A DNA stretch of 64,000 bases from Roseibacillus sp. (GTDB lineage Bacteria > Verrucomicrobiota > Verrucomicrobiia > Verrucomicrobiales > Akkermansiaceae), in the NCBI GenBank assembly GCA_002686085.1, contig NZAC01000049.1:62001-126000 (forward strand), written 5' to 3'. The translations under genes and the position numbers were made by a program. Positions 39,525-57,744 of the stretch are shown in pieces. Under the pieces are notes generated by a model, which was given only the letters and a program-made list of their open reading frames with translations, had not been told where the DNA came from and did not search any database. Every line of letters starts with the position of its first letter. Positions within the stretch are counted from its first letter, which is position 1.

Positions 39525-39620
39525 TCTCAGCAGGAGAGGGCTCTGGATTGCCGCAATGTAATTCCGTGATTGCGATTTTCAGTCGCAGTCTTCATCCTGA
39601 CTGGAATCATTCAGATTACC

Positions 39621-40520
39621 ATGAAGCAGCGACTATCACTCATTCTTCCAATCGCTTTGGCGGCGACCATGGTTCCCCTTGCGATCGGCCAGAAGGACGG
39701 TGAGTCCAAGGGAAAGAATGCGGATAAGATTGCCCCAAATCTACCAGAGAAGGCTTTCGCCGAGGCCAAGAAAAAGCGTAAGTTGCTCGTTTTCTCGCGA
39801 ACCACGGGTTTCCGCCATGGATCCATCGCAACCGGTCTCACCGCGATGAAGATGATGGGTGAGAAAACCGGTGCCTTTGAAGCGATTCTGAGCGACGACT
39901 TGGATAATTTTGAGAGCGATAAGATCAATCAGTTTGATGCTATTCTCTTTCTCAACACCACTGGGGATCCTTTCATGGAGAAGGGCAAGGCTGACGCCAA
40001 GGCTCGGTCTGAGAGGCTGCAGAAGAACCTGCAGGATTTTGTGAAAAGTGGAAAGGGTTTTGCGGGCTTTCACTCCGCCACAGATACCTTGAAGCCTGGT
40101 GGTGGAAAGACTCCGGAATACTCCAAGATGATCAATGGTGCGTTCGATGGGCACCCCTGGGGGGGTGGCAGTAATGTGACGATCGCGGTGGAAAAGGGAC
40201 AGGAAAAGCACCCAATCGTCGCCCATCTCGGCGGCAAGAGCATGAGCTTCAAAGAAGAAATCTACCAACTCCGAGACCCCTACGATTCGAGTAAGGTGCA
40301 GATGTTGCTTCGGCTTGACTTGGAGAGAAGCGATAAGAAAAATCTGAAGCGGGCAGACCGTGATTACGGGGTGGCTTGGGTCAGGAAGTGGGGAGAAGGG
40401 CGTGTGTTTTACTGCTCTCTGGGACATAATGACGCAATGTACTGGCATCCGGAGGTCCTGAAGGTGTATCTGGGCGGGCTGCAATATGCGCTTGGGGACT
40501 ATGATGTGCCCTCCAAGTAG
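39621..40520 (+). CDS. Exported ThuA-domain protein
   Basis: A 299-residue exported protein with a signal peptide (MKQRLSLILPIALAATMVPLAIG); ATG 39621 is chosen for that reason over an upstream frame start at 39570. The ThuA fold, a class I glutamine amidotransferase-like domain, is seen in KLLVFSRTTGFRHGSIATGL, FDAILFLNTTGDPF, GKGFAGFHSATDTL, HPWGGGSNVTIAVEKG, KHPIVAHL and GEGRVFYCSLGHNDAMYWHPEVL. ThuA proteins are linked to trehalose and sugar metabolism, but the biochemical role of exported forms is not known. It ends the sugar operon. Confidence 0.85.
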   Translation: MKQRLSLILPIALAATMVPLAIGQKDGESKGKNADKIAPNLPEKAFAEAKKKRKLLVFSRTTGFRHGSIATGLTAMKMMGEKTGAFEAILSDDLDNFESDKINQFDAILFLNTTGDPFMEKGKADAKARSERLQKNLQDFVKSGKGFAGFHSATDTLKPGGGKTPEYSKMINGAFDGHPWGGGSNVTIAVEKGQEKHPIVAHLGGKSMSFKEEIYQLRDPYDSSKVQMLLRLDLERSDKKNLKRADRDYGVAWVRKWGEGRVFYCSLGHNDAMYWHPEVLKVYLGGLQYALGDYDVPSK

Positions 40521-40705
40521 TGGTTCTCGCCAATTTCGATCGCAGGACCAAGGTCCCCAAACGCTCGAGGCTTCTTGGGCCGGTCTCGTTTTGCCTCGCA
40601 GAACGTTCATTTCGAGTGCTTTGTATCAGGGGCGCGGTGGAGCCTGATTTCCTAGAGAAATGGTCCCTCTAATTAAGGCTCTGCCCCTGCTCTGGTTACC
40701 GTGTG

Positions 40706-40770
40706 GGATTGCTTAATCCGGGCTTGTGAAAAATTTCACAAAGGCCTTGTGAAAAATTTCACAAGGCCTT
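40706..40770. promoter_or_regulatory. Twin CRP/FNR-type palindromes upstream of actA
   Basis: Two identical copies of TTGTGAAAAATTTCACAA lie at 40724-40741 and 40747-40764, 23 bp apart. Each contains TGTGA-N6-TCACA, the consensus of E. coli CRP and similar to FNR/CRP-superfamily sites. The second is enclosed in a larger 30-bp palindrome (AAGGCC...GGCCTT, 40741-40770). A further GGATT-GCTT-AATCC palindrome is at 40706-40719. The second site ends 26 bp before the actA start, close for activation, so repression or a transcript hairpin are alternatives. They precede the whole ACIII-oxidase cluster. The rest of 40521-40705 shows only a GGACC-AA-GGTCC palindrome at 40545-40556. Confidence 0.7.
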
Positions 40771-40790
40771 AGCTTCGGGCAGTTAAGCCC

Positions 40791-41507
40791 ATGGCCAATT
40801 TCTTCCCGCGTTGGACGAACATTTTGCCGCTAAAAATAGCGGTGTGCCTAGGAGTTGCCGGTGCGAGTGTGGTTGTAGGTTTTACCTACTATGCCACGCC
40901 CAAAGCGCAACGGGTAGGATACATGCCTTCGCAGCCCATCCCGTATGACCACGCATTACACGTGAACCAGTTGGGCATGGATTGCCGATATTGCCATAGC
41001 TTTGTCGAACACTCAGGGCATGCAAACGTTCCCTCGGCGAGCACTTGTTGGAACTGTCACCAGCACGTCCGGAAGGACAGCGATAAGCTGCAGCCTCTGC
41101 GACGGGCATTCGACAAGGACTACGAGCATTACGATGGAGAACCGATCAAGTGGGTGCGGATCCATCAGAGTCCGGACTACGTGTTCTTCAATCACTCGGC
41201 TCACGTCAACCGGGGAGTTTCCTGTGAATCTTGTCACGGCAAGGTGAATGAGATGAAAGTGGTCTACCAGGCTGAGGCGCACTCCATGGGCTGGTGTCTT
41301 GATTGTCACCGGAATCCGGAAAAGCATCTTCGCCCCCTCGAGGAGGTCTATAACCTTGATTACGACGCAGAGGATTGGCTGGCAGAGAACAAAATGGTTC
41401 ATCCAGAGACTGGGAAACAACTAAAGAGCCAGAAGGATCTCGGGCTTTACCTCAAGGAGCATTGGAACATCAAGGCAAAGGAGAGCTGTTGGACCTGCCA
41501 CCGTTGA
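40791..41507 (+). CDS. actA: Alternative complex III subunit ActA, pentaheme cytochrome c
   Basis: A 238-residue protein with one N-terminal TM helix (about 13-33) and five CXXCH heme motifs: CRYCH, CWNCH, CESCH, CLDCH and CWTCH. The opening NFFPRWTNILPLKIAVCLGV and the VGYMPSQPIPYDHALHVNQLGMDCRYCH segment are typical of ActA. In ACIII, a quinol oxidase unrelated to bc1, this subunit passes electrons from the iron-sulfur subunit ActB to the downstream cytochrome. First gene of the respiratory cluster, preceded by the twin palindromes. Confidence 0.95.
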   Translation: MANFFPRWTNILPLKIAVCLGVAGASVVVGFTYYATPKAQRVGYMPSQPIPYDHALHVNQLGMDCRYCHSFVEHSGHANVPSASTCWNCHQHVRKDSDKLQPLRRAFDKDYEHYDGEPIKWVRIHQSPDYVFFNHSAHVNRGVSCESCHGKVNEMKVVYQAEAHSMGWCLDCHRNPEKHLRPLEEVYNLDYDAEDWLAENKMVHPETGKQLKSQKDLGLYLKEHWNIKAKESCWTCHR

Positions 41508-41510
41508 AAC

Positions 41511-44500
41511 ATGAGTAAGCGTGTTTTCCATCACCCAGAAGCGCCTTCCGATGATTCGGGAGTTGCTTCTTGGCGTAGTGTGGGAGAGCTGGAGAGTACG
41601 CCCTCTTTCAGGGCACATGTTGAGCGTGAGTTTCCCGAGGGGTCCGGCCATCTGAGCGAAGAAGATCAGAAGGCCACGAGGAGAAGTTTTATGAAGCTGA
41701 TGGGCGCATCCTCAGCTTTGAGTGGGCTCACCCTTGTTTCATGCCGTCGGCCCGAATCCTACATTGTCCCCTACAAGAAGGCTCCTGAGTGGGTGATTCC
41801 CGGCAAGCCGTTGTATTACGCGTCAACCCGTCCTCGAGCAGAAGGATCGGTCCCGCTGGTGGTCACAACGTATGAGGGGCGTCCGACCACCCTTGCCCCA
41901 AACGGTGAACACAATGATGGGTGCGGTGCAGACGCGCTCACTCATGCCTCGGTGCTCAACCTTTATGATCCAAAGCGATCAAGGAATTTCCTCCGGAAAG
42001 GCAAAAAGTCCTCGCAGAGGGAATTCGAGCAGGTTTTGGGCTCTCTTGCTCGTGAAGGTGCCAAGTTGGCGGTCCTTGTCGGCGAGGATGACAGCCCTAC
42101 CCGAAATCGCTTGAAAGCGGAGCTTGAACAAGCCTACCCGGGATCCAAATTTTACAGCTATGAGGCCTTGTGTGGAGAAGCGAGGCGGTCGGTCCAAGAC
42201 CAAGTATTCGGAAAGGGGACTCGCACATCAGTAGATTTTTCAAAGGCTGATCGAATTCTTTCCCTCGACTGCGATTTCCTTGGTCTTGACGCGATCGGAA
42301 GTGCCTCTGATTTCTCCAGAAAAAGGCAGGGGGGTGGTGAAGATTACAGAGAGGATATCGCGGCGGACGCCATGAACCGACTTTACATGATCGAGTCCGC
42401 TTTCAGCCTAACAGGAGGTATGGCGGACCACCGGATGCGTGCGAAACCCAGCCAGATGACGGCGGTAGCGGCTCAAGTAGCGAGTGAGCTTGGAGTTCAG
42501 GTGACGGGCTACGAGTCTGGAACACTTTCAAGCGAGGAAAAGGCGAAGTTGCTGGGAAGTGCAGAAAATTTTGACTCATGGATCAGAGAGTGCGTTGCAG
42601 ATTTGAAGGCGCATCAGGGCAAGGCAGTTGTTCTCGCCGGTAGCAGACACAGTGAAGAGCTTCAGCGGATCGTCATCGCCATAAACAACCAAATCGGGTC
42701 TTACGGGGGACCCATGGTCGTCTACGAAACAGGCCGTGCCGAATATGGGACTATCGAGGATTTTGAGGCGGACGTTGATGAGGAGACATCCGTAGTTCTT
42801 TTGGGACCGGCTAATCCGCTCTTTGATCGTCCTGGTGAGCGTTTCGCGAGGGTGCTGAAAAAGGCCAAGGTGAGTATTCATCTGGGCGTGAGAACCGACG
42901 CTACCGCATTGGGATGTGACTGGCATATTCCTGCAGCCCACTACCTTGAGAGCTGGGGTGATACCAGAACGGCCAGTGGAACATACTCCTTGATCCAGCC
43001 CATGATCCTGCCTCTCTATGGAGGGTTTTCAGAACTTGAGGTTCTCTCGCAGCTACTGAGTTGGAGAAAATTTGACTGGGACAGTCTGGAAGCCGATGAT
43101 TCAGAGGATCCGGCCGTGCCTCCCACTCTGATTGCTGGGGAGGGAATGGGCGGGGAACCATCGCCAGCCCTCGCTGAGGTGAGGAAGACCTTTTCCCTTC
43201 CAGAAAATGCCAACGATGATGGCGACGTTGCATGGAAAGAAGCTCTTAAGAACGGATATCTCCAGAGTAGCTCTTACCAGACCGTTGATGCAGACAACGC
43301 CAAGGATCCTGCACCTAGCGTAAGCAGGCCTGCCTCCAAGGGTATCGAAATCAACTTTCTCCCAGATGCCTCGGTCTGGGATGGTCGCTATATCGACAAC
43401 GGCTGGCTTCAAGAGGCTCCGGATCCCATTTCGAAGCTCTCGTGGGACAACGCTGCTTTGGTGTCTCCGAAAACTGCCAAGGAGCTTGGCGTCTACGAAT
43501 CGGTTGAGCAGCTTGAGCCAGAAACCGATATTCCCGTCCTCGGTAAGGTGAAAAACGCTCCTCAGCCTTCTATCGGAGAGGGCAAGGGGGCGAGGGCGCC
43601 GATGGTTCTCATCAAGACTCAGTCTGGACGAATGGAGGTTCCCGTTTTGGTTGCCTTCGGTCATGCAGATGACTGTATCTCTGTTGCTTTGGGCTATGGT
43701 CAGGGTGCTTCAGATGGTCGGGATGGGGTTCGGGTTGCCCGCGATGATGACCCTCTGGCCCCAGTGAGTGCGGTAGGACTAAACACAGGATTTAATGCAA
43801 ACCAGTTGAGGGGAGACGCGTCGTTCAATATCGAGGCGGCTTCGGTCACCAAGCTTCAGGAACGATATCCTGTCGCGCTCGTTCAGGAGCATAATGCGAT
43901 GAACGGGCGAGCCCTTGCCCGGGAGATTTCCACTAACGATGTGGAGCATCATGGCCACAAGGTGTCCTTCGAGGAACAGGTCGCCAAGGTTCGGGAGCAG
44001 GGTCCGGTCGACTCCCACGCACCTGAGAATATTTCACTCTACAAACGTCGTGGATCCACGACGTGGGAAAGCGATAAAGACAAACAGGACGATCTCATTA
44101 GTGATAAGATTCACCAGTGGGGTATGACTATTGATCTCAATACCTGTGTGGGATGCAACGCCTGCCTGATTGCTTGTCAGGCTGAAAACAATATTCCAAT
44201 CGTCGGTAAAGAGCAGGTGGCCATGGGTCGGGAAATGCACTGGGTGCGAATGGATCGCTATTATGCGGCTCCCATGACGGAGATGGATGAAAAAACCCAC
44301 AAGAAGGTTCCGACTCCTGACTGGGTTCAGCAGAACCCCGAGATGATCCCTCAACCGGTGTCCTGCATGCAGTGCGAGAATGCCCCATGTGAGACCGTCT
44401 GTCCGGTAAACGCCACAGTGCACAGTGAGGAGGGTCTTAATACGATGGCCTACAACCGGTGTATCGGAACCCGCTATTGCGCGAACAACTGTCCCTATAA

Positions 44501-45071
44501 GGCGAGGCGGTTTAATTATTTCGACTACAACAAGCGGAACCCTGTCATAGCTAACAATCTCTACAAGGGACCGTTCGGTGAGAAGCAAGTTGGAGAAGCT
44601 CCTCATCTGCAGCGTAATCCGAATGTGTCGGTCCGGATGCGGGGAGTGATGGAAAAGTGCACCTACTGTGTGCAGCGGCTTGAGAGTGCCAAGATCAAGC
44701 AGAAGCAGATTGGCCGGATGAAAACCCTGCGAGCAGGGCAAAATTCGACCAACGTGAAAATCAAACCGGAGGACCTGAGGGTGAAGGCGGACTCGATCAA
44801 GATGGCTTGCCAAGATGCTTGCGAGGCGAATTCGGTAAGTTTTGGAAACCTCTTGGACAAGGAAGATGCGCAAGTCTGGCGGGCCAAATACAAGGGAGAA
44901 AAGAAAACTAAAAGTGGAGCGCTTGAGCTCATCCACAACCCAAGGAACTACGATGTGCTGCAGTATATCGGAACGGCTCCAAGGACCAGTTATCTTGCTC
45001 GTGTGAAGAATCCAAATCCTGCTATGCCCGATGCGGTTTATCGCGGCCTGGCAACAATTAACACCGGCTGA
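41511..45071 (+). CDS. actB: Alternative complex III subunit ActB (molybdopterin-like/iron-sulfur)
   Basis: An 1186-residue periplasmic subunit. The N-terminal twin-arginine-like motif RRSFMKLMGASSALSGLTLVSC ends in a Cys that could be lipidated. Residues about 60-850 form a molybdopterin-oxidoreductase-like region (ActB is known to lack the cofactor). From about 870 comes a NrfC/PsrB-like domain with four Cys clusters: CVGCNACLIAC (from Cys 879), CMQCENAPCETVC, CIGTRYCANNC and the later CTYC...C group. These should bind three [4Fe-4S] and one [3Fe-4S] clusters, as in characterised ACIII. It begins 3 bp after actA. Confidence 0.95.
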   Translation: MSKRVFHHPEAPSDDSGVASWRSVGELESTPSFRAHVEREFPEGSGHLSEEDQKATRRSFMKLMGASSALSGLTLVSCRRPESYIVPYKKAPEWVIPGKPLYYASTRPRAEGSVPLVVTTYEGRPTTLAPNGEHNDGCGADALTHASVLNLYDPKRSRNFLRKGKKSSQREFEQVLGSLAREGAKLAVLVGEDDSPTRNRLKAELEQAYPGSKFYSYEALCGEARRSVQDQVFGKGTRTSVDFSKADRILSLDCDFLGLDAIGSASDFSRKRQGGGEDYREDIAADAMNRLYMIESAFSLTGGMADHRMRAKPSQMTAVAAQVASELGVQVTGYESGTLSSEEKAKLLGSAENFDSWIRECVADLKAHQGKAVVLAGSRHSEELQRIVIAINNQIGSYGGPMVVYETGRAEYGTIEDFEADVDEETSVVLLGPANPLFDRPGERFARVLKKAKVSIHLGVRTDATALGCDWHIPAAHYLESWGDTRTASGTYSLIQPMILPLYGGFSELEVLSQLLSWRKFDWDSLEADDSEDPAVPPTLIAGEGMGGEPSPALAEVRKTFSLPENANDDGDVAWKEALKNGYLQSSSYQTVDADNAKDPAPSVSRPASKGIEINFLPDASVWDGRYIDNGWLQEAPDPISKLSWDNAALVSPKTAKELGVYESVEQLEPETDIPVLGKVKNAPQPSIGEGKGARAPMVLIKTQSGRMEVPVLVAFGHADDCISVALGYGQGASDGRDGVRVARDDDPLAPVSAVGLNTGFNANQLRGDASFNIEAASVTKLQERYPVALVQEHNAMNGRALAREISTNDVEHHGHKVSFEEQVAKVREQGPVDSHAPENISLYKRRGSTTWESDKDKQDDLISDKIHQWGMTIDLNTCVGCNACLIACQAENNIPIVGKEQVAMGREMHWVRMDRYYAAPMTEMDEKTHKKVPTPDWVQQNPEMIPQPVSCMQCENAPCETVCPVNATVHSEEGLNTMAYNRCIGTRYCANNCPYKARRFNYFDYNKRNPVIANNLYKGPFGEKQVGEAPHLQRNPNVSVRMRGVMEKCTYCVQRLESAKIKQKQIGRMKTLRAGQNSTNVKIKPEDLRVKADSIKMACQDACEANSVSFGNLLDKEDAQVWRAKYKGEKKTKSGALELIHNPRNYDVLQYIGTAPRTSYLARVKNPNPAMPDAVYRGLATINTG

Positions 45072-45093: not shown

Positions 45094-46587
45094 ATGGCAG
45101 ACACCGCCACAAAGACCACGAGTGAGACGACCGCACCAAGGGAGGTGAAGATCCCGGTGTTGGAGCGCGAGACGCTCGTGCTTAACAAGCGGTCCTACCA
45201 CTGGATCACCGAGCGGGTGTGTGGAGTGATCGAAAATAAGCAGCCGGCCTTTTGGTGGCAGTTATTCATTCCTTGTGTTATCATGGCTGCTATTGGGGTC
45301 GGTGGTGGACTCATTTATCTCGTCAGTACCGGAGTAGGGGTCTGGGGAAACACCAACCGCGTGATGTGGGGTTGGCCCATTGTGAATTTCGTCTTCTGGA
45401 TCGGGATCGGTCATGCCGGCACCCTGATCTCCGCAATCCTTTTCCTTACCCGACAGAATTGGAGGACCTCGATCAACCGGGCTGCAGAGGCGATGACGAT
45501 TTTTGCGGTCGTCTGTGCAGGTATTTTTCCGGCTTTCCACGTCGGACGAGTGTGGATGGCGTGGTATCTCGCTCCGATTCCAAATGCGAACGCGATCTGG
45601 CAAAACTTCAAGTCCCCGCTGCTCTGGGACGTCTTCGCGGTTTCGACATATTTCACGGTTTCTTTGATCTTTTGGTTTCTGGGGATGGTTCCGGATCTGG
45701 CCACAATCAGAGATCGTTGTAAGAGAGGCCTGAAGAAGTTCCTCTACGGTTTATTCTCCTTAGGGTGGAGGGGAAGTAACCGCCACTGGAGTCACTACGA
45801 GATGACCTATCTCCTTCTCGCGGCTCTTTCGACGCCCCTTGTCCTTTCGGTTCACTCGGTGGTGAGTTTTGACTTTGCCACTTCGGTGGTGCCAGGATGG
45901 CACACAACGATTTTTCCTCCTTATTTCGTGGCAGGAGCTATTTTTGGAGGTTTTGCGATGGTGTTGACGATCATGATTCCCGCCAGGTTCATCTATGGGC
46001 TGGGGGACATGATCACGATGAAGCACATCGACAACATGGCGAAGATCATTCTGCTGACCGGGACGATCGTGGGCTACGCCTACCTGATGGAGCTCTTCGT
46101 AGCCTTCTACTCCGGGGCCACCTACGAAATGGCTGCCTTTACCTACCGAATCACCGGTCCTTACTGGTGGGCGTATGTAGCAATGATGAGCTGCAACGTA
46201 TTGTCTCCTCAACTTTTCTGGTTCCGGTGGTGCCGGGAAAACCTCTGGGTCGTGATGGGAGTATGTATGGCGGTAAACGCCGGGATGTGGTTCGAGCGCT
46301 TCGTCATCATCGTGACAACGCTGGCCCGTGACTTCATGCCCGCAAACTGGAAGTATTACAATCCGAGCTGGGTAGACATCATTCTTTTCCTCGGAACGAT
46401 CGGACTGTTTACTTCGCTCTTCCTCCTCTTCCTCAGGTTTTTACCCTGCATCAATATTGCTGAGGTGAAGTGGGCCAAAAAGGAGAGTGATGTGCTTTAT
46501 GACGACAAACAGGCACATCCGGATGAAGGAACGGTAGTGGAAGCTGCCTACCAGCAGGAAGTTGAGAAAGGAACCGCTGAAATCTGA
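45094..46587 (+). CDS. actC: Alternative complex III subunit ActC (NrfD-like quinol-site subunit)
   Basis: A 497-residue integral membrane protein of the NrfD/PsrC family with about ten TM helices from residue 55 to 460. Typical segments are [90 protein letters not shown] and [21 protein letters not shown]. In ACIII, ActC forms the main quinol-binding site next to ActB. The 3' end overlaps the start of actD by one base. Confidence 0.95.
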
Positions 46588-47144
46588 TGAGTAGTTCTGT
46601 CAAACGCGTCTACGGCTATCTCGCTGAGTTCGAAAGTGCCTCCGCCCTTTATAAGGCAGCGGAAAAAGTGCGTGATGCCGGGTTCCGTAAATGGGACTGC
46701 TATACACCGTATCCAGTCCATGGTCTGGACGACGCGATGGGCATTAAGAGATCGATCCTGCCCTATTTTGTCTTCTTCGGAGGGCTCACCGGTCTTACAA
46801 CAGCCTTTATCCTTTCCTATGTGACTCAGGTGGGGATTTATCCCACTGTAGTACAAGGAAAGCCGGCCAATATTTTCACGGTTCCCGCATTTTTCCCGAT
46901 CATGTTTGAGCTTACGGTGCTTTTTTCGGGATTCACCACGCTCTTTGGTTTTCTGGGACTGACTCAGCTACCCCGCTGGAATCATCCTATATTCGCGAGT
47001 CGTCAGATTCATCGCGCAACTGATGACGGATACTTTATTGAGATAGAGGCCCGGGATCCAAAGTTCTCCGCGGAGGGGACACGGGGGTTTCTTGATGAAA
47101 TTGGGGGAGGAAATATTGAACTGGTGGAGGACGACGGAACCTAG
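46587..47144 (+). CDS. actD: Alternative complex III subunit ActD (DUF3341)
   Basis: A 185-residue membrane protein. It starts with a small soluble domain (VYGYLAEFESASALYKAAEKVRDAGF, CYTPYPVHGLDDAMG), then two TM helices (about 58-82 and 105-128), and ends with a soluble region (DDGYFIEIEARDPKFSAEGTRGFLDEIGGGNIELVED). This is the DUF3341 arrangement; ActD is a small structural subunit of ACIII. It is translationally coupled to actC by a one-base overlap. Confidence 0.93.
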   Translation: MSSSVKRVYGYLAEFESASALYKAAEKVRDAGFRKWDCYTPYPVHGLDDAMGIKRSILPYFVFFGGLTGLTTAFILSYVTQVGIYPTVVQGKPANIFTVPAFFPIMFELTVLFSGFTTLFGFLGLTQLPRWNHPIFASRQIHRATDDGYFIEIEARDPKFSAEGTRGFLDEIGGGNIELVEDDGT

Positions 47145-47153
47145 GCTGTAACC

Positions 47154-47852
47154 ATGAAGTATTTCTTTCTTGCTCTTGCTGGGTTGATCACCCTCACGGT
47201 GGGTGTGTTCGGGCTGCGTGGTCAGAAGACCGTCAAAACTCCCATTGAGATTTTTCCGGATATGGATCGCATGGATTATGTGAAAAGTCAGAAGCCAAGC
47301 GACTTTTTTCACGATGGACAGGGAGCGCGGCTGCCAGTGCCGGGGACAGTCCCCCACTCCAGTGATGACGGGGTATTTCCCGTTGAGTTTGGAGAGGGAA
47401 GAACGGGTCATTACTACACGGGGGCCATCAATGACTACTTTGCGAGCGGACTCCCACTTGAGGAGCTTGGACTAGTCGGTGACGAAGCGTCGGAAGACAT
47501 GCAGGCGTTGTTAAGGCGCGGTCAGGAACGCTATGCGGTCTTCTGCGCGATCTGTCATGGGGGTTCGGGCGACGGAAACGGCACGATCAGCAATTATATG
47601 GCGGCAAAGATCGCGAACCTCCATGAGCCTCGATTTGCCAGTGGGGCGTATCCTGATGGAAAGCTGTATCACGTGATCACTTATGGACAGGGTTTGATGA
47701 GCGGATACGGGGCAAGCATTCCGGTGCGGGATCGGTGGGCCATCGTGGCCTACGTCAGGGCTTTGCAGGATGCTAAGAAAGCGCCGGCCTCGCCGGCGAC
47801 GGCCTCGGTTTCATCAGAAAATAAGGAAGAGGCAGGAGGGCCAAGCAACTAA
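47154..47852 (+). CDS. actE: Alternative complex III subunit ActE, monoheme cytochrome c
   Basis: A 232-residue protein with an N-terminal membrane anchor or signal (about 2-22) and one heme c motif, CAICHGGSGDGNG. The preceding DMDRMDYVKSQKPSDFF and LPVPGTVPHSS match ActE-type cytochromes, and the axial Met probably lies in LMSGYGASIP. ActE is the electron exit cytochrome of ACIII. It begins 9 bp after actD. The Ala/Ser-rich C-terminus (PASPATASVSSENKEEAGGPSN) is low complexity. Confidence 0.93.
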   Translation: MKYFFLALAGLITLTVGVFGLRGQKTVKTPIEIFPDMDRMDYVKSQKPSDFFHDGQGARLPVPGTVPHSSDDGVFPVEFGEGRTGHYYTGAINDYFASGLPLEELGLVGDEASEDMQALLRRGQERYAVFCAICHGGSGDGNGTISNYMAAKIANLHEPRFASGAYPDGKLYHVITYGQGLMSGYGASIPVRDRWAIVAYVRALQDAKKAPASPATASVSSENKEEAGGPSN

Positions 47853-47859
47853 ACTCGTC

Positions 47860-49206
47860 ATGGCACATCATCTTGTTACATCCGCAGACATCCCAGAGGA
47901 GGGCGAAAGGCTGGATGCTGGGAGGCTGAAGAAAATCAGAACGATCTGCCTGGCCGTAGCTGTAGGAGGTGGGCTCTTAAGCGCACCTGCTCTGTTTGGA
48001 CTGTTCGGACAGGGCGTTCAGGGTTCATTCAGCTTCTCGTGGCTCTATGGGTTCTTCTTTTTCGCGACCCTTGCGATGGGAGGTTGTTTCTGGACCTTGC
48101 TTCACAATGTGTCCAACTCGGGATGGGGCGTCTCCGTTCGGAGGGTTATGGAAAATGTGGGGTTTGTCTTTCCTTGGATGTTTATTCCGATGCTTCCTTT
48201 GCTCTTGCCTGAGGTTCAGAAGTTTCTCTTCGAATGGATGCCAAAGCACCGAGAGGCAGCAGAATATGCAGCTCGATACGGCGAGTCCGCCAAATATGGA
48301 CTACACCACGGACCAAAAACAGATCACCTCCTCTATGTTAAGTATTGGTATCTGAATCTCGATTTTTGGTATGTTCGGATGGTCGCCTATTTCCCGCTAC
48401 TTGGGTTTACAATATACTTTCTTCGGAAGCTATCTGTTGACCAGGACAGTGATCCTAATCCAGGGACAAGCCGTCTCAAACGGGCACGGTGGCATTCTTG
48501 CTGGGGGGTGCCTGTGTTCGCTGTGGTTCTAACGTTCCTCGCGATCGACGTCGTCAAGACACTCGACTATAAATGGTTTTCTACCATGTGGGGAGTCTAT
48601 GTCTTTGCAGGAAGCGCCCTGAACGCAATGGCAGTTATCATTCTCATAACTATTGCGCTGCGGCGGATGGGGTATCTCAAAAACGTCGTCGGTCCCGAGC
48701 ATGACCACCTCATGGGGAAGCTTGTGTTCGCCTTCACAGTGTTCTGGGCTTATATCTCCTTCGACCAGTATTTCCTGTATTGGTATGCTAATATCACGGA
48801 GGAGACCCGCTACTTCATTCTTCGCAATACCGCGGGATGGAATTATGTCAGTGTTGTCTTAGTATTCGGTCACTTCGTCGCTCCATTTCTCCTGCTCATC
48901 AGACAAGATCTCAAACGTCGGAATGGCTATATGATCGTGATCGCCTGCTACCTGCTGTTCATGCACATGATTGATCTTTATCATATGATAATGCCGGAAC
49001 GTGGACCTTCGGTAACGAAAGTCCTCCACCCTGGCAACCCTGACAGCTGGTCTCTTTGGCTCAATATGTCGGGTGTGGGTGACGTCGTGGCATTTATGAC
49101 AGTGGGTTGTTTTTTCGTCTATATTCTCCTTCGTAACCTTGGGTCTGCGGCTCTCTACCCGCACCGAGATCCACGTATTCTAGAATCTGCGAACGTTCAT
49201 AACTGA
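47860..49206 (+). CDS. actF: Alternative complex III subunit ActF (NrfD-like)
   Basis: A 448-residue integral membrane protein with about ten TM helices, a second NrfD-like subunit. ATG 47860 (MAHHLVTSADIPEEGERL) is chosen because it starts 7 bp after the actE stop; the open frame continues upstream into actE but is not family-like. Segments such as RVMENVGFVFPWMFIPMLPLLL, YLNLDFWYVRMVAYFPLLGFTIY and MHMIDLYHMIMPE are typical of ActF. It completes actABCDEF; its stop overlaps the next cytochrome start (TGATG). Confidence 0.93.
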   Translation: MAHHLVTSADIPEEGERLDAGRLKKIRTICLAVAVGGGLLSAPALFGLFGQGVQGSFSFSWLYGFFFFATLAMGGCFWTLLHNVSNSGWGVSVRRVMENVGFVFPWMFIPMLPLLLPEVQKFLFEWMPKHREAAEYAARYGESAKYGLHHGPKTDHLLYVKYWYLNLDFWYVRMVAYFPLLGFTIYFLRKLSVDQDSDPNPGTSRLKRARWHSCWGVPVFAVVLTFLAIDVVKTLDYKWFSTMWGVYVFAGSALNAMAVIILITIALRRMGYLKNVVGPEHDHLMGKLVFAFTVFWAYISFDQYFLYWYANITEETRYFILRNTAGWNYVSVVLVFGHFVAPFLLLIRQDLKRRNGYMIVIACYLLFMHMIDLYHMIMPERGPSVTKVLHPGNPDSWSLWLNMSGVGDVVAFMTVGCFFVYILLRNLGSAALYPHRDPRILESANVHN

Positions 49207-50036
49207 TGGAATCTCAGCCGCAAAACCGTCCTGGTTCTTCGGAATCTCCTCAAAAAGGGGATGTGAATAACGGCCTTAAGCGCTTCTCGACTTTCTGGAT
49301 CGGATGTATTCTCTTCGTGGCCTTTGGATTAGCCAGTCTGGTGCTGGGAATTGGATTCAACAAGCCAGCCGTCAACAACATCGATAAGGTGAATGCGAAA
49401 CGGAGAGGAATGATCAAGAGGGAAGTCGATAAAGCCCATGCTGGAGCGCGCGAAAATGCGCTTCTGAGCTTCGAGCGGGTCGGTTCTCACTTTCTCAATA
49501 CCGCGCCGGCGCCTGACGAGAAGCCAGAATTTGTCTTGCCCGGTTCTGCGACGCAAAAGAGAAAAGCGTCCGGCGGATCCGGGATTGTAGTTCCTGCCGA
49601 CTTCCCGAAGGTTGATCCGGACGCTCCGGTGGATGTAGCGGTAATGGAGAGGGGAAAGGCGACATTCGCCATATGCTCAGCTTGTCATGGCCTTGAGGGA
49701 GAGGGGATGTATCACATCAACAAGACAGGTCCTCCTTTAGCCAATTCAGAGTGGGTCACCGGCCCGGTTGCTAATTTGATCGCCATTCAATTTCGTGGGC
49801 TGAGTGGGCCAATTGAGGTAAACGGCGAGAAATATACTCCTGTGGCACCAATGGCGCCTCTGCCTTTGGACAACGATTCTATCGCTGCAGTTCTGACCTA
49901 CATCAGGAACAGTTTTGGTAATAAGGCATCCCCGGTCACGCCGGAGCAGGTAGAAGCTATGAGGGGGGAGCTCGGTAAGCCGATGTTGAGCCCCGCAGAT
50001 CTCATCCCTCCAACTGTGGCGGCTGGTTCAAATTAA
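49206..50036 (+). CDS. Membrane-anchored monoheme cytochrome c, first paralogue
   Basis: A 276-residue protein with one N-terminal TM helix (about 26-50), a flexible linker and a C-terminal cytochrome c domain with CSACHGLEGEGMYHINKTGP. The region after the heme, NSEWVTGPVANLIAIQFRGLSGPIEVNGEKY and LTYIRNSFG, closely parallels the cytochrome at 52303-53070. It overlaps actF by one base and precedes the CcoN-like gene by 14 bp, so it probably links ACIII to what follows. Not part of the standard six-subunit ACIII. Confidence 0.85.
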   Translation: MESQPQNRPGSSESPQKGDVNNGLKRFSTFWIGCILFVAFGLASLVLGIGFNKPAVNNIDKVNAKRRGMIKREVDKAHAGARENALLSFERVGSHFLNTAPAPDEKPEFVLPGSATQKRKASGGSGIVVPADFPKVDPDAPVDVAVMERGKATFAICSACHGLEGEGMYHINKTGPPLANSEWVTGPVANLIAIQFRGLSGPIEVNGEKYTPVAPMAPLPLDNDSIAAVLTYIRNSFGNKASPVTPEQVEAMRGELGKPMLSPADLIPPTVAAGSN

Positions 50037-50050
50037 GATCACGATTTTCC

Positions 50051-51547
50051 ATGACCTCCGAGAGCAATACCCGGACACCAGATCAGAATGATCTAAAGCT
50101 ACGGGCAAGTATTGACCGCTCCCTGCGCCAGCCCGTGATGTTCTTTTTTGCGAGCGGGGCGGTTTGGCTGGCTGTTGCAATTATTCTTGGTTTCATTGCG
50201 TCCTACAAGAGTCACAGCTCCGACTTTCTCTCCGGGATCGAGTTTTTGACCTACGGGCGAGCATATCCTGCACATATCAATCTTCTATTTTACGGGTGGG
50301 GGTGTCAGGCCGCTTTCGGACTGATCGTATGGCTTTTAGCGAGGCTGTCCCGCAGTGAGTGCCGAGCCACTGGAATTATCCTTACCGCCGGTCATCTTTG
50401 GAATTTCGGCGTCATGGCAGGAACGCTGGGCATTCTTTGCGGCTTCGGATCCGGAAAGCCACTCATGGAGTTTCCGCCGGCAATCTGGCCGGTCCTCCTT
50501 CTGTCTTACGTCTTTATCACGGTATGGTCATTCATTCAGGTCCGCTGTAGTTATGGAGGTAAAACCTATGTGGGGCAGTGGTACCTTCTCGCCGCGGTAT
50601 TCTGGTTTCCGTGGGTGTATCTCACAGGACACCTGTTTGTGTTTGTTTTCAATGGTCATCCCGTGATGGCTGCAGGGATTAACGCCTGGTACAAATATGC
50701 GCTCATTCTTCTGTTCTTCACGCCAGTTGCGCTGGGGACGGCTTACTACCTTGTTCCGAAAATTACAGGTCGCCCCATCTACAGTTACTCTCTGGCTCTC
50801 TACGGGTTCTGGGCGCTGGCGGTGATTGGACCGTGGGCAGGAATGCAGAAGCTTGCAGGGGCGCCACTCCCACAGTTCATGCCCTATGTCGGAGCAACCG
50901 CGACTAGCCTGATCCTCATTCCTGGAATTGCGGTGGGCGTCAATCTCCTCATGACACTGCGCGGGCATCAGGCCCACGTTGTGGCCAGTCCGTCCTTGCG
51001 GTTTACGATTGCAGGAGTAGTTGGCTTCCTTCTGCTAGGATTCACGGGAATGTTCCTGAGCACTCCGGCGGCCCTGAAGATGACTCAGTTTGCCCTTACG
51101 GGCTATGGGTTTGAGATTCTTGCCGTCTGTGGATTTTTCAGCATGTGTGCGTTTGGAGGCATCTATTTCATTGTCCCGCGGATCACCCGGCGTGAATGGC
51201 TGTCCCGTCGCTTCATTGGATGGCACTTCTGGTTGACGACTTATGGAGTTCTGACGGTAGTTGTCTGCTCCATCATGGGCGGTCTGTTCCAAGGTGCTGC
51301 GCAGGAAGCTTATAGCAGTTCGTGGAGCGATGCTGCTTCTCGGAGCTATGCTTACAATGTCGGGACTACCGTTGCCTGGGGTTTTATCGCTGTCGGTAGT
51401 TTTTTCTTCCTGATTCACCTTCTTCTCATGTGGGCTAGACTGGGGAGACGGAGCCAGCATCCGACCCTTCTTGGGGGAAGCCATAGTGAACAGTCACCCC
51501 ATGGTCCCGACCATGAGGTAGAGGAACTCCAAACCGTGGAAGCCTGA
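50051..51547 (+). CDS. CcoN-like oxidase subunit I lacking the catalytic histidine motifs
   Basis: A 498-residue protein with about 12 TM helices and the overall layout of cbb3 subunit I (CcoN). Alignable segments are YPAHINLLFYGWGCQAAFG, YYLVPKITGRPIYSYSLALYGFWAL and YFIVPRITRREW. By eye, His 75 (low-spin heme ligand in helix II) remains, but the CuB His of WYGHN reads W213-Y-K-Y216, the HH pair reads around M265-Q-K267, and the GHVH ligands for the high-spin and low-spin hemes read G351-Y-G-F354. It should therefore not reduce oxygen. Paired with the CcoO-like gene 4 bp downstream, it may be an electron-transfer or scaffolding subunit between ACIII and the real oxidase. Confidence 0.8.
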   Translation: MTSESNTRTPDQNDLKLRASIDRSLRQPVMFFFASGAVWLAVAIILGFIASYKSHSSDFLSGIEFLTYGRAYPAHINLLFYGWGCQAAFGLIVWLLARLSRSECRATGIILTAGHLWNFGVMAGTLGILCGFGSGKPLMEFPPAIWPVLLLSYVFITVWSFIQVRCSYGGKTYVGQWYLLAAVFWFPWVYLTGHLFVFVFNGHPVMAAGINAWYKYALILLFFTPVALGTAYYLVPKITGRPIYSYSLALYGFWALAVIGPWAGMQKLAGAPLPQFMPYVGATATSLILIPGIAVGVNLLMTLRGHQAHVVASPSLRFTIAGVVGFLLLGFTGMFLSTPAALKMTQFALTGYGFEILAVCGFFSMCAFGGIYFIVPRITRREWLSRRFIGWHFWLTTYGVLTVVVCSIMGGLFQGAAQEAYSSSWSDAASRSYAYNVGTTVAWGFIAVGSFFFLIHLLLMWARLGRRSQHPTLLGGSHSEQSPHGPDHEVEELQTVEA

Positions 51548-51551
51548 ACTG

Positions 51552-52283
51552 ATGACATTCAAATCCTTCATTACGGCGTTGGGGTTGAGCTTTGGAATCC
51601 CCTGGCTGTTGATCATCCTCATTCCCTTCGGGAAAATGCGAGATCTGGAGCCTGTCTATTTCGAAACAGAGAATGATGGGAAGGACGAGGTTTACGTCCC
51701 TCGCCGCTCGGGGCTTATAACCACTGGTTCCTCGGTGTATGGCTCCAATGGTTGTTATATCTGTCATACACAGCTCATCAGGGCTGGGTATGCCGGGTCA
51801 GAGCTTGGCCGCGCGGATTGGGCTGGTTTTCAGGTCAAGGATGAGAACGGAGTGAGCGTGAACACCGCCCGTGAAACCACTCCTTTCGACTACGTCGACG
51901 AGCCGTTCGCGCACATCGGCCTCATGCGGATCGGTCCGGATCTCACAAATGTCGCTGGAAGGATCCAGAAATACCTCAAGGAGCCACTGACAAAGGCGAA
52001 ATCTCCTGAGAGCTGGCTCTATCTACATCTTTTCAATTCTTCGTTGAAGACAAAGACTCTGAACAACTCCTTTGCGTGTCCGCCGCAGCCTCATTTTTTC
52101 AAGGAACAGCCGGTTCACGGGCAGGGAAGCCCTCATGCTGTTCCAAGCTTGAGCAAGGAGGGGAGAGAGGTTCTCCCGACTCCAAAAGCGAAGGCCCTCG
52201 TCAGTTATCTGCTATCTTTGAGAAAAGACGATGCGGTACCCTATTCCCTGAATTATAGTCGCAATAAGAAGAAGGCGGATTAA
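51552..52283 (+). CDS. CcoO-like monoheme cytochrome c
   Basis: A 243-residue protein with one N-terminal TM helix (about 7-28) and one heme c motif in YGSNGCYICHTQLIRAGYAG, as in CcoO of cbb3 oxidases. LMRIGPDLTNVAGRIQ and a C-terminal KAKALVSYLLSLR also fit; the axial Met candidate is in the LMRIGPD region. It is the natural partner of the CcoN-like protein encoded 4 bp upstream. No CcoP with two hemes follows; a monoheme cytochrome does. Confidence 0.85.
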   Translation: MTFKSFITALGLSFGIPWLLIILIPFGKMRDLEPVYFETENDGKDEVYVPRRSGLITTGSSVYGSNGCYICHTQLIRAGYAGSELGRADWAGFQVKDENGVSVNTARETTPFDYVDEPFAHIGLMRIGPDLTNVAGRIQKYLKEPLTKAKSPESWLYLHLFNSSLKTKTLNNSFACPPQPHFFKEQPVHGQGSPHAVPSLSKEGREVLPTPKAKALVSYLLSLRKDDAVPYSLNYSRNKKKAD

Positions 52284-52302
52284 TGACCGACCAAATGAGC
52301 TG

Positions 52303-53070
52303 ATGGCGAAATCGCAGCATACGAACAAGATCGATCGACCTGATCTCGAAGACTCGACCAACGTGGTTGAGAAACACGAGAAGCTGTTGGAAATCAGTGC
52401 CTCACAGGCCAGAGAAAATCAGATATCGGAGACCGGAATGGAGCCTGTCTCTCTCTGGGTCTTCCTCGCAAGCGCGATCGTTCTGCTAATTGGGGGTGGA
52501 GTTCTCGGAGCGGGCGGAAAACTCTTTAGTTATAATCCTCATCCAGAGGGCTACACGCGCCCAGATTTCGCCAGTGACGCCGATACGGGGCCAACGATCG
52601 GCCCGATTGTGGAAGCCCTCGCAAAACGGGGAAAAAATATTTATGCCAAGTGCAGTGGTTGTCACGGGTCGACTGGAAGCGGGGATGGAAATCAATACCC
52701 ACCCCTTGCCGGATCGGAGTGGGTGACCGGGAATACCGCGCGGCTAGCCCAGATTATCCTGAACGGCCTCAGTGGGCCCATCGATGTTGCCGGCAAGACC
52801 TACAATGGGAACATGCCGGCGCAAGCCCCCCTCACAGCGGCAGAACTTGCAGCCGTCATGACCTACATCCGGAATGAATTCAACGATGTGGGTGATGTAG
52901 TCAGCGTCGAGCAGGCGGCCGGCGCAATCAAGGTCTATGAGAGTCGCCCCCAGGGCGCAATTACGGTGAAGGAACTGGATGCGGACCACGATCAAATGCT
53001 CGAAGGAGAAGTCGTGGATCCTTCTACGAGCGTGAACTTCGAGACGCTCCAACCCGCAGCGGCTGAATAG
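52303..53070 (+). CDS. Membrane-anchored monoheme cytochrome c, second paralogue
   Basis: A 255-residue protein with a TM helix at about 48-68 and a cytochrome c domain starting CSGCHGSTGSGDGNQYPPL. GSEWVTGNTARLAQIILNGLSGPIDVAGKTY and LAAVMTYIRNEFNDVGDVVSVEQA parallel the cytochrome at 49206-50036. The likely heme axial Met is in YNGNMPAQAPL. It lies 24 bp before ctaD, so it may be the direct donor to the CuA site of the oxidase or take the place of CcoP beside the CcoN/CcoO-like pair. Confidence 0.85.
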   Translation: MAKSQHTNKIDRPDLEDSTNVVEKHEKLLEISASQARENQISETGMEPVSLWVFLASAIVLLIGGGVLGAGGKLFSYNPHPEGYTRPDFASDADTGPTIGPIVEALAKRGKNIYAKCSGCHGSTGSGDGNQYPPLAGSEWVTGNTARLAQIILNGLSGPIDVAGKTYNGNMPAQAPLTAAELAAVMTYIRNEFNDVGDVVSVEQAAGAIKVYESRPQGAITVKELDADHDQMLEGEVVDPSTSVNFETLQPAAAE

Positions 53071-53094
53071 AAATTACCCCCCAAACGAAGGACG

Positions 53095-54981
53095 ATGAGC
53101 GCAGAAGCGGTAGCAACAGATCATGGGCACGATCATGATGATCATCATCACGATCTTCCCTTCTACAAAAAGTATATCTGGTCGACAGACCACAAGGTGA
53201 TCGGGATTCAATATGCCATCACGGCATTACTCTTCCTCGCCTTTGGCTTCTTCCTGATGATGGTGATGCGGTGGAGCATCGCATATCCAGAGGAGCCACT
53301 CCCAGGATACCTCAGTTGGATTTTCAGTGATGAATGGAAGGCTCGGTGGCTTCAGGATGGTCGAGTGACAGGTGAGACTTACAATATGTTCGGTGCCATG
53401 CACGGTACGATCATGGTTTTCCTTGGAATCGTGCCTCTCGGATTTGCCGCCTTTGGAAATTATATCACTCCGCTGCAGATTGGGACCATCGATATGGCAT
53501 TTCCGAAGCTCAACATGATGAGCTACTGGCTCTACCTTGCTGGAGGCCTTACCATGTGTGCCAGCTTTTTCATGGAATCAGGCGCCGCGAAATCCGGGTG
53601 GACGAATTATGCCCCGCTCGCGAACTTTGCCGACGGTCAGATCGTTAATCAATTTCTTGCAGGCCAGACGCAATGGCTCCTGGGAATGGTACTTCTGATC
53701 ACGTCGTCTCTTCTTGGTGCCGTGAACTTCCTCACCACTCTCATCAATCTCCGAGCGAAGGGAATGACATGGATGCGAATGCCCTTTTTCTGCTGGGCGA
53801 TGCTTGTTACGGGGTTCCTTCTGCTGCTCGCCTTTCCTCCTCTTGAGGTGGCAGCAATCATGCAGTTGATGGACCGGACAGTCGGTTCCAGTTTCTTCAC
53901 GCCAAGTGGTCTTTATACTTCTACAGCCGGGGTGATCGAAGCCTCGGGAGGGGGTAGTCCTCTTCTCTATCAGCACCTGTTCTGGTTCCTCGGACATCCA
54001 GAAGTGTATGTCCTTCTGCTGCCCGCCATTGCTTGTGTGGCTGAAATCATTCCAGTGAACACCAGAAAGCCCCTCTGGGGTTACAAGCCCATGGTGTGGT
54101 CGATAGTCATTCTGGGTTTTCTCAGCTTCATCGTCTGGGCTCACCACATGTATCTAACGGGGATGGGACCGGTAATATCCACGTGGTTCCAAACCACGAC
54201 CGTGTTGATTTCTGTGCCCTCAGTCATCCTCCTGACTTCGTTAATTGTTTCGCTGTGGGGTGGCTCGATCCGGTTTAACATGCCCATGCTCTGGGCGGCG
54301 GCCTTTCTCCCGATGTTTGGGATAGGGGGGCTGACTGGCCTGCCCTTAGCATTCAACCTGGTTGATCTCCATTTGCACGACACCTACTATGTGATTGGGC
54401 ACTTCCACTACGTGGTTGCACCAGGAATTCTCTTCGGACTCTTCGCAGGTCTCTATCACTGGTTCCCGAAGGTTACCGGGAGGCACATGAATACCTTCCT
54501 CGGACACCTTCATTTCTGGCCCTCTCTGGTCTTTATGAATGTGCTCTTTTTCCCAATGCTCATCCAAGGGATGGCTGGATTCCACCGGCGATGGTATAAC
54601 GGGGGGGACGCTTATCTCTCCAAGGCAGCTGACAGTGAGAATGTCTTCGGGAATACCGTGGCAGAATGGATTCATCTAAACCCCGTCATGAGTTTCGGGG
54701 CATTCATGCTGGCGATTGCCCAAATCCCGTTCTGCATCAACTTCTTCCTGAGCATTTTCGCAGGGAAAAAAATCAAAAATGACAACCCGTATGATGCAAC
54801 AACCTTGGAATGGGCCACGCCTACGCCTCCGCCGCACGGGAACTTCACTTTTGATGTCGCAGCCTACCGAGGCCCTTACGAATACAGCCGAGATGATCAT
54901 GAGGGTGATTTCTTCCCTCAGTGGGAGGAGCCGAAAAGGAACAAGCCAGCCAAAGAACCCAAGACCTCGCCTGTTTCCTGA
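53095..54981 (+). CDS. ctaD: Cytochrome c oxidase subunit I (aa3/caa3 type)
   Basis: A 628-residue catalytic subunit with 12 or more TM helices. Ligands are in place: MFGAMHGTIMVF (low-spin heme), HPEVYVLLLP with the cross-linked His-Tyr, AHHMYLTGM (CuB His pair), and HDTYYVIGHFHYVVAPG (high-spin and low-spin heme His). It reduces oxygen to water and pumps protons. The N-terminus is unusual: a His/Asp-rich run of 12 residues (DHGHDHDDHHHD) before the first helix, which may bind metal. The gene order ctaD, subunit III, subunit IV, small proteins, subunit II is uncommon. Confidence 0.95.
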   Translation: MSAEAVATDHGHDHDDHHHDLPFYKKYIWSTDHKVIGIQYAITALLFLAFGFFLMMVMRWSIAYPEEPLPGYLSWIFSDEWKARWLQDGRVTGETYNMFGAMHGTIMVFLGIVPLGFAAFGNYITPLQIGTIDMAFPKLNMMSYWLYLAGGLTMCASFFMESGAAKSGWTNYAPLANFADGQIVNQFLAGQTQWLLGMVLLITSSLLGAVNFLTTLINLRAKGMTWMRMPFFCWAMLVTGFLLLLAFPPLEVAAIMQLMDRTVGSSFFTPSGLYTSTAGVIEASGGGSPLLYQHLFWFLGHPEVYVLLLPAIACVAEIIPVNTRKPLWGYKPMVWSIVILGFLSFIVWAHHMYLTGMGPVISTWFQTTTVLISVPSVILLTSLIVSLWGGSIRFNMPMLWAAAFLPMFGIGGLTGLPLAFNLVDLHLHDTYYVIGHFHYVVAPGILFGLFAGLYHWFPKVTGRHMNTFLGHLHFWPSLVFMNVLFFPMLIQGMAGFHRRWYNGGDAYLSKAADSENVFGNTVAEWIHLNPVMSFGAFMLAIAQIPFCINFFLSIFAGKKIKNDNPYDATTLEWATPTPPPHGNFTFDVAAYRGPYEYSRDDHEGDFFPQWEEPKRNKPAKEPKTSPVS

Positions 54982-55002
54982 AGATTCTCAAATTCCCCTA
55001 TT

Positions 55003-56889: not shown

Positions 56890-56903
56890 CCCCTGTATCG
56901 CCC

Positions 56904-57281
56904 ATGGCTGACACACCTGAAGCAATCCAGAAGGCAAAGAAGCAGTATATACTGATAGGCCTCATCCTGTTCGTTTTCACAGTGGTGACGGTTGCGGTGG
57001 CAACTGTGCCCTGGCTGGATTTCGGCGATCATGGCTTTGACTCAAAGGATGCAGTCATTGGACTTCTGATTGCTACATTCAAAGCCAGTCTCGTGGCCTC
57101 GATCTTCATGCACCTCAACCATGAGAGAAAGACGATCTACCTTGTTCTTTTGATTAGTGCGGTAATGGGCATCGTTTTGTTTTTTTTGACGGGTTGGGCC
57201 TTCGTTGATCCGATTGAGTATGGCAATACCGTCGAGGGGGATCGATTTTATAACCCCGAGAAACCAATTACCTCAGACTAA
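56904..57281 (+). CDS. ctaF: Cytochrome c oxidase subunit IV (prokaryotic COX4)
   Basis: A 125-residue protein with three TM helices (about 15-37, 50-72, 75-98). The sequence AVIGLLIATFKASLVASIFMHLNHERKTIYLVLL is the signature of prokaryotic subunit IV. It stabilises the oxidase. It begins 14 bp after the subunit III gene. The end is a short tail (YGNTVEGDRFYNPEKP) of unknown relevance. Confidence 0.9.
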   Translation: MADTPEAIQKAKKQYILIGLILFVFTVVTVAVATVPWLDFGDHGFDSKDAVIGLLIATFKASLVASIFMHLNHERKTIYLVLLISAVMGIVLFFLTGWAFVDPIEYGNTVEGDRFYNPEKPITSD

Positions 57282-57288
57282 ACCAACA

Positions 57289-57492: not shown

Positions 57493-57510
57493 GTTCACAC
57501 CATCCAAGTC

Positions 57511-57705: not shown

Positions 57706-57744
57706 GAACGTTTTCTCATCTTTTGTTCTACAACCTGAGCACTC

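What the first reader, a model, noticed from the sequence alone, without database searches (positions are those of the whole stretch)
40706..40770. Twin identical TGTGA-N6-TCACA palindromes before the respiratory cluster
Seen: two identical 18-bp palindromes 23 bp apart, the second enclosed in a perfect 30-bp palindrome, ending 26 bp before actA. Known: TGTGA-N6-TCACA is the binding consensus of CRP and close to that of FNR-type regulators. Inference: a CRP/FNR-family regulator controls the 18-kb ACIII/oxidase cluster, with the position favouring repression or a leader hairpin.
Basis: partly seen in the sequence, partly recalled or inferred. Interest (0 to 1): 0.66.

Follow-up and report, generated by a model that had tools for sequence, protein, structure and literature searches.

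The report
Rex redox switch on respiration genes
The twin palindromes are most likely landing sites for Rex, a repressor that senses the NADH/NAD+ balance, and the same site stands before the main energy-generating respiratory genes of these bacteria, so one sensor probably tunes the whole chain.

Summary
The twin 18-mers are exact Rex operators (published consensus TTGTGAA-N4-TTCACAA), not CRP/FNR sites. The genome has no CRP/FNR protein detectable by PF13545 or PF00027, and one Rex gene. Its six exact boxes all stand before respiratory operons: nuoB, nuoDEF, nuoGHIJ, atpB and, twice, actA. Across 189 genomes of the order, boxes and rex go together (149 both, 29 neither, 11 box only, 0 rex only). 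Three close relatives that keep actA but lack its box also lack rex and any box.

Comparison exposes the promoter. At nuo/atp the box ends just before a -35 that starts CTTG. At actA, box 2 itself supplies that -35 (CTTGTGA, 17 bp, TA), so Rex should block RNA polymerase, while box 1 sits in the nuo/atp position. This explains the fixed 23-25 bp twin spacing, and puts the palindrome upstream of the predicted start, so no leader hairpin.

Best reading: a whole-chain Rex regulon, known in kind from Streptomyces. New, as far as my searches went: the phylum, control of alternative complex III, the two-slot promoter layout. Binding, sign of regulation and transcription start are inferred.

The parts
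40724..40741 (.). Rex box 1, TTGTGAAAAATTTCACAA; lies in the same slot relative to the -35 (TTG begins at the 6th base after it) as the single boxes of nuoB, nuoD, nuoG and atpB
40747..40764 (.). Rex box 2, identical 18-mer; its first half CTTGTGA is the inferred -35 of the actA promoter
40741..40770 (.). extended inverted repeat around box 2 (14/14 arms, central AA unpaired); the extension is not a general feature of boxes in relatives
40747..40752 (+). inferred -35 hexamer TTGTGA
   Evidence: TA at spacer 17 or 16 in 26 of 26 distinct twin promoters
40770..40775 (+). inferred -10 hexamer TAGCTT (spacer 17); predicted start of transcription near 40782 (inference)
40791..41507 (+). actA, multihaem cytochrome c subunit of alternative complex III, first gene of the cluster
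41511..45071 (+). actB, iron-sulfur subunit (name by position and by its relatives)
45094..50036 (+). actC (NrfD-like, 45094-46587), actD (46587-47144), cytochrome c subunit actE-like (47154-47852), an ORF without Pfam match in the actF place (47770-49206; name inferred), cytochrome c (49206-50036)
50051..58641 (+). oxidase genes: COX1 (50051), FixO-like (51552), cytochrome c (52303), second COX1 (53095), COX3 (55003), COX4_pro (56904), COX2 (57745)
39570..40520 (+). upstream gene, ThuA family; not part of the cluster
40569..40605 (+). two terminator-like hairpins, better candidates than the palindrome for ending the upstream operon

Best explanation
The twin palindromes are two operators for the redox-sensing repressor Rex. 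When NAD+ is plentiful, Rex dimers bind; the dimer on box 2 covers the -35 and the spacer of the actA promoter and keeps RNA polymerase off, and the dimer on box 1, 23 bp upstream, strengthens this. When NADH builds up, Rex lets go and the alternative complex III/cytochrome oxidase operon is made, together with complex I (three operons) and ATP synthase, which carry the same box. Shown here by computation: the sites, the Rex gene, the regulon, the co-occurrence and co-loss, the promoter spacing. Inferred: binding, its control by NAD(H) (from Rex of other bacteria), repression rather than activation, the start of transcription.
For: Sequence equals the Rex consensus TTGTGAANNNNTTCACAA (quoted in PMC5317091, passages; S. 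aureus TTGTGAAW4TTCACAA, PMC2883068, abstract). One Rex gene in the genome, L020:6113-6757, with scores over the cut-offs of several NCBIfam Rex models, PF06971 64.9 bits, closest solved chain Rex 5zz5 E 1.4e-45. All 6 exact boxes of the genome stand before nuoB, nuoD, nuoG, atpB and actA. In 13 same-family genomes with all boxes read, the five targets are complete in 11 and four of five are present in 2. Rex and box by genome, 189 genomes: 149 both, 0 Rex only, 11 box only, 29 neither (20 of the 40 Rex-less genomes were not listed by the tool and are inferred by elimination). Exact box before actA in 61 of 70 usable ActB loci. Prediction test: the three box-less loci with ActB 48-52% identical (L051, L071, L073) lie in genomes with 0 Rex and 0 boxes, while 5 of 5 box-bearing comparison genomes have both. 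Promoter: TTG begins 6-8 bp after the box in 49 of 49 nuo/atp sites; twin gap 5-7 bp in 29 of 29 twins although 0-30 was allowed, all 29 before actA. Streptomyces avermitilis Rex represses nuo, atp, cyd and ndh2, and its operators at rex, nuoA1 and atpI cover the -35 (PMC5355995, abstract and passages).
Against: No binding or expression data exist for this organism in what I saw. 11 of 160 box-bearing genomes show no Rex gene (8 are under 90% complete; G058, G130 and G136 are 90-95%). The nuo/atp boxes lie upstream of the inferred -35 (about -60 to -42), which is not the classical repressing position. The consensus scan finds no strong sigma-70 promoter at actA. No exact box lies before actA in 9 of 70 usable loci (one of them has a single-mismatch box), four of which (L095, L096, L097, L099) are from genomes that do have Rex. 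The species are related, so the co-occurrence counts are not independent.
Confidence: 0.86

Rival explanations
1. The sites bind a CRP/FNR-family regulator (TGTGA-N6-TCACA).
For: The core TGTGA-N6-TCACA fits the CRP consensus (recalled); S. aureus Rex sites were first described just as TGTGAn6TCACA (PMC2883068 passage).
Against: 0 matches to PF13545 and 0 to PF00027 in a genome 96.46% complete; in the family only 3 of 60 genomes have a full-length HTH_Crp_2 match, 12 of 60 any match over the cut-off. The box tracks Rex instead.
Confidence: 0.02
2. The 30-bp palindrome works as RNA: a leader hairpin or a terminator.
For: If transcribed it would fold strongly (85 nt, -38.3 kcal/mol, z -6.7).
Against: No T-run; terminator-like sites lie upstream at 40569-40605. 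The box is upstream of the inferred start of transcription. Over 79 distinct sites, outer flanks are about as complementary as column composition predicts (46 against 43.4 at offset 1, 40 against 37.8 at offset 2; the largest excesses are 32 against 22.1 at offset 3 and 27 against 18.3 at offset 5; offsets 4, 7 and 8 fall below). The box disappears when rex is lost although actA stays.
Confidence: 0.04
3. Rex binds, but in the upstream slot (box 1 and all nuo/atp boxes, about -60 to -42) it activates, touching RNA polymerase at a promoter with a poor -35, while in the -35 slot (box 2) it represses.
For: Distance from box to TTG held at 6-8 bp in 49 of 49 sites and, as CTTG, in 159 of 189 genomes of the order; weak -35 (TTGCCG, TTGCGC) and -10 (CATATT, CATAGT); the fixed twin spacing of 23-25 bp gives the same distance.
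Against: Rex is described as a repressor in the papers seen; one phrase search for Rex as activator listed only PMC2883068. A dimer ending 5-7 bp before the -35 could equally exclude RNA polymerase.
Confidence: 0.17

Closest known systems
Rex regulon of Streptomyces avermitilis (PMC5355995: abstract and passages seen)
   Same: Same operator TTGTGAA-N4-TTCACAA; targets include complex I (nuo), ATP synthase (atp) and ndh2; operators at rex, nuoA1 and atpI cover the -35 region, as box 2 does here
   Different: Other phylum; target here is alternative complex III with its oxidases rather than cytochrome bd; no box with up to 2 mismatches on the contig of rex in this genome; nuo/atp boxes lie upstream of the inferred -35; twin box at actA
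Rex regulon of Staphylococcus aureus (PMC2883068: abstract and passages seen)
   Same: Identical operator consensus TTGTGAAW4TTCACAA; exact sites bind best; one gene, ldh1, has two putative sites
   Different: Targets there are mostly fermentation and anaerobic genes
Ravcheev et al. 2012 comparative Rex regulons (paper not held; seen only as quoted in PMC5317091)
   Same: Generalised consensus TTGTGAANNNNTTCACAA
   Different: Whether Verrucomicrobiota were covered could not be checked
CRP/FNR operators (recalled)
   Same: Core TGTGA-N6-TCACA
   Different: No CRP/FNR protein detected in the genome

Membership tests
Rex operator and regulon | 18-bp site TTGTGAA-N4-TTCACAA | tested here: met
   two exact copies at 40724 and 40747; consensus
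Rex operator and regulon | rex gene in the same genome, matching Rex over its DNA-binding and NAD-binding parts | tested here: met
   L020:6113-6757, 214 aa, full-length match to NCBIfam Rex models and to solved Rex chains over residues 5-205
Rex operator and regulon | targets are NADH-oxidising and respiratory genes | tested here: met
   nuoB, nuoD, nuoG, atpB, actA
Rex operator and regulon | site and rex gene occur and vanish together | tested here: met
   149/0/11/29 in 189 genomes; three rex-less genomes with box-less actA; 11 box-only genomes are exceptions
Rex operator and regulon | site overlaps the promoter so that binding blocks transcription | tested here: inconclusive
   met in the inferred actA promoter; nuo/atp boxes lie upstream of the inferred -35; no transcription start is mapped
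Rex operator and regulon | binding enhanced by NAD+, relieved by NADH | not testable with these tools
   needs purified protein
CRP/FNR-regulated site | a CRP/FNR protein (PF00027 plus PF13545) in the genome | tested here: not met
   0 and 0 matches; control genomes ring in 10 of 14 and 14 of 14
Intrinsic terminator | GC-rich hairpin followed by a T-run | tested here: not met
   no hit at the palindrome

The most novel reading that the evidence does not exclude
In Verrucomicrobiota, Rex is a two-slot regulator of the whole respiratory chain. In an upstream slot at fixed distance from a weak CTTG -35 (nuo, atp, box 1 of act) NAD+-bound Rex activates, and in the -35 slot (box 2 of act) it represses, so that the twin operator makes complex III/oxidase output respond to the NADH/NAD+ ratio in a graded or non-monotonic way, unlike complex I and ATP synthase.
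Probability: 0.17. Interest if true: 0.78.

Novelty: new variant of a known kind. Interest (0 to 1): 0.56.

Why it matters
It gives a phylum with little regulatory data a concrete, genome-wide respiratory regulon with a named sensor, adds alternative complex III to the likely targets of Rex, and yields a promoter layout precise enough to predict transcription starts. It also offers a natural experiment: lineages that lost rex lost the boxes, in some cases while keeping complex III, which can be compared for what NADH-linked control of respiration is worth.

Tried and rejected
CRP/FNR: rejected on absence of the protein families. Terminator and leader hairpin: disfavoured as above. A box of up to 2 mismatches at rex itself: none on that contig, so a strong autoregulatory box is not seen. 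Two-mismatch sites in the own genome (10 places) were not treated as operators: the backwards control gives 3 at up to 2 mismatches. I first expected a -10 at spacer 17 from every box's own TTGTGA; that failed for nuo/atp, where it led to the CTTG element after the box instead. The class-wide pattern fixed the distance at 7 bp only and so undercounts (21 of 286 genomes); (order) used 4-6 free bases plus CTTG. Literature searches for Rex with Verrucomicrobia, Rex with Akkermansia (one unrelated paper), alternative complex III with repressor/promoter/regulon and Rex with alternative complex III (two papers, PMC5317091 read in passages, PMC4215793 seen in the listing only) gave no description of this regulon; only open-licence papers are in that library.

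The box targets in the box-rich genomes G024 and G032 (13 and 12 boxes) were not read. No structure was predicted.

Full report
What is there. The window holds TTGTGAAAAATTTCACAA twice, at 40724-40741 and 40747-40764, 23 bp start to start, the second ending 26 bp before the ATG of actA. The 18-mers and the 30-bp inverted repeat 40741-40770 are symmetric except for a central A-A. The genes downstream are an alternative complex III cluster with two COX1 genes and other oxidase subunits; the upstream neighbour is a ThuA-family gene. Relatives in named records are Roseibacillus and Akkermansiaceae genomes (Verrucomicrobiota); the best ActB match is 98% identical.

Which regulator. TTGTGAA-N4-TTCACAA is the consensus of the redox-sensing repressor Rex, quoted in PMC5317091 from Ravcheev et al. 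2012 (passages) and reported for S. aureus as TTGTGAAW4TTCACAA (PMC2883068, abstract, passages). The genome (3.95 Mb, 73 contigs, 96.46% complete) has one protein with the Rex N-terminal domain, a full-length Rex by NCBIfam and by comparison with solved Rex chains. It has no match to the HTH of CRP/FNR or to the cNMP-binding domain of that family. In the family survey 43 of 60 genomes have some HTH_Crp_2 match at E 0.001, 12 of 60 over the cut-off, and 3 of 60 a full-length one.

The regulon. The genome holds six exact boxes and none with one mismatch. They lie before nuoB (C14:52715), nuoDEF (C24:28689), nuoGHIJ (C24:25238), atpB (C26:52062) and actA (C49:102724 and 102747). By base composition 0.0096 would be expected. 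All boxes of 12 further genomes of the family were fetched and their neighbours identified by comparison with this genome's proteins. With the own genome, 11 of 13 have all five targets and 2 (G094, G137) have four, lacking nuoB. In G129 the atpB box (L145) was missed by the rule but is seen. Additional targets are a Pyr_redox_2 protein, probably type II NADH dehydrogenase (6 of 13 genomes), and a polyprenyl synthetase, perhaps for the quinone tail (6 of 13). Two boxes stayed unassigned (L153, L174); their neighbours are a DUF5690 gene and a TetR gene. In three other loci (L125-L127) the neighbouring gene is a 446-aa ORF, identified as COX1 for L125.

Co-occurrence. In 189 genomes of the order, PF06971 is found in 149 and the exact box in 160: 941 boxes in all, against one site for the backwards control. 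The table is 149 both, 0 Rex only, 11 box only, 29 neither (Fisher p 2e-25; the genomes are related, so this is not a true probability). The tool did not list 20 of the 40 Rex-less genomes; I assigned them by elimination. Of the 29 without either, 26 are one genus (g2, probably Akkermansia by its genome size and family; names are hidden) and three are in two other genera (G077, G149, G183). Eight of the 11 box-only genomes are under 90% complete; G058, G130 and G136 are 90-95%.

The actA site in relatives. Of 80 ActB loci, 10 were dropped for too little upstream DNA without a box; of the 70 kept, 61 have an exact box within 1.1 kb before actB, one (L059) has a single-mismatch box, 8 have none. 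Five of the 61 have under 1.1 kb upstream and were kept because they showed a box; without them the count is 56 of 65 (from the same call and the positions). Of the 8 without a box, three have ActB 48-52% identical to this one (L051, L071, L073) and five are more distant (L095-L099, 37-40%). I then asked whether those genomes have Rex (14 genomes). L051, L071 and L073: no Rex and no exact box anywhere in the three genomes (two are small, 1.5-1.6 Mb, and may be incomplete). L098: neither. L095, L096, L097 and L099: Rex present, 0-3 boxes, none at actA. L059: Rex present and four exact boxes. Five of five comparison genomes with the box have Rex and 6-7 boxes. So among nearer relatives the actA box goes when Rex goes, though actA stays; in more distant lineages Rex does not hold actA everywhere. 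Some other families of the class do have box and actA together (L202, L203, L207).

Promoter layout. In gene orientation, the nuoB, nuoD, nuoG and atpB boxes are followed by TTG beginning 6-8 bp after the box in 49 of 49 sites from 13 genomes (TTG at offsets 5-8 in shuffles: mean 2.6, maximum 9), always at 8 for nuoG (13/13) and atpB (12/12). The best -10 lies at spacer 17 in 8 of 11 nuoB, 9 of 13 nuoD and 12 of 13 nuoG sites (ties counted); for atpB it is not clear, spacer 13 scoring best in 10 of 12 and 16-18 being alternatives. The composite box-N4-6-CTTG occurs in 159 of 189 genomes of the order, with no backwards match; in the own genome 5 of 6 boxes have it, the sixth being box 2. At actA, the box itself is preceded by C in 75 of 79 distinct sites, giving CTTGTGA, and TA stands at spacer 17 in 34 of 60 distinct sequences, against at most 5 at any other distance. 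In the twin promoters TA is at spacer 17 in 23 and at 16 in 3 of 26 distinct sequences. So box 2 probably carries the -35, and Rex on it would cover -35 to -18, as Rex does at rex, nuoA1 and atpI of S. avermitilis (PMC5355995, passages).

Why two boxes. In 145 genomes of the family a search allowing 0-30 bp between two boxes found 29 with a pair; all gaps are 5, 6 or 7 bp (13, 1 and 15 genomes) and all 29 pairs precede actA. These gaps place the TTG of box 2 at the 6th, 7th or 8th base after box 1, the same distances as between the nuo/atp boxes and their -35. The twin is therefore best read as the two slots of this regulon superimposed: box 1 in the nuo/atp slot, box 2 in the -35 slot. One near relative, L021 (ActB 98%), shows only box 2, but its contig ends 96 bp upstream, so an assembly fault at the repeat is possible.

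Mechanism and limits. NADH reduces the DNA binding of Rex and NAD+ competes with it (PMC5355995, abstract passage). The expected behaviour is that respiration genes are released when NADH accumulates. Binding, sign and start of transcription were not measured. The upstream slot is compatible with exclusion of RNA polymerase but also with activation; the constant spacing and weak -35 make activation worth testing.

Novelty. Rex control of nuo and atp is known from Streptomyces. My searches of the open-licence library found no paper on Rex in Verrucomicrobiota or on Rex and alternative complex III in this sense. Ravcheev et al. 2012 was not available, so its coverage of this phylum is unknown to me.

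Noticed in passing
L017:7389-8657 (own genome, C14): The nuoB box lies between nuoB and a divergent gene for a nickel-dependent putative hexonate epimerase (NF052594), 58 bp from the latter's start; Rex may touch both.
   Followed up: no
window 50051-58641: Two COX1 genes in one cluster: one followed by a weak FixO-like gene (cbb3-like), one with COX3, COX4 and COX2 (caa3-like).
   Followed up: partly
L208, L211, L215 (other families of the class): Box plus CTTG stands before small proteins with a weak CarboxypepD_reg-like domain in three genomes; not an obvious respiratory gene.
   Followed up: partly
L214: Box plus CTTG upstream of a region with a CtaA/COX15 (haem A synthesis) gene in another family of the class; the gene lies about 800 bp from the box.
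   Followed up: partly
L120 and L132 (relatives): A Rex box beside a polyprenyl synthetase; in six genomes of the family it ends about 10-15 bp before an apparent start codon, so quinone side-chain synthesis may belong to the regulon.
   Followed up: partly
G024 and G032: 13 and 12 exact boxes, an enlarged regulon in one genus of another family; targets not read.
   Followed up: no
L020:4021-8147 (own genome, C12): rex is followed by an ECF sigma factor gene and faces a PP2C phosphatase gene; it is not near the respiratory genes.
   Followed up: no
L021:1-97: Contig of the nearest relative ends just upstream of box 2 with box 1 missing; possible misassembly at the repeated 18-mer.
   Followed up: no
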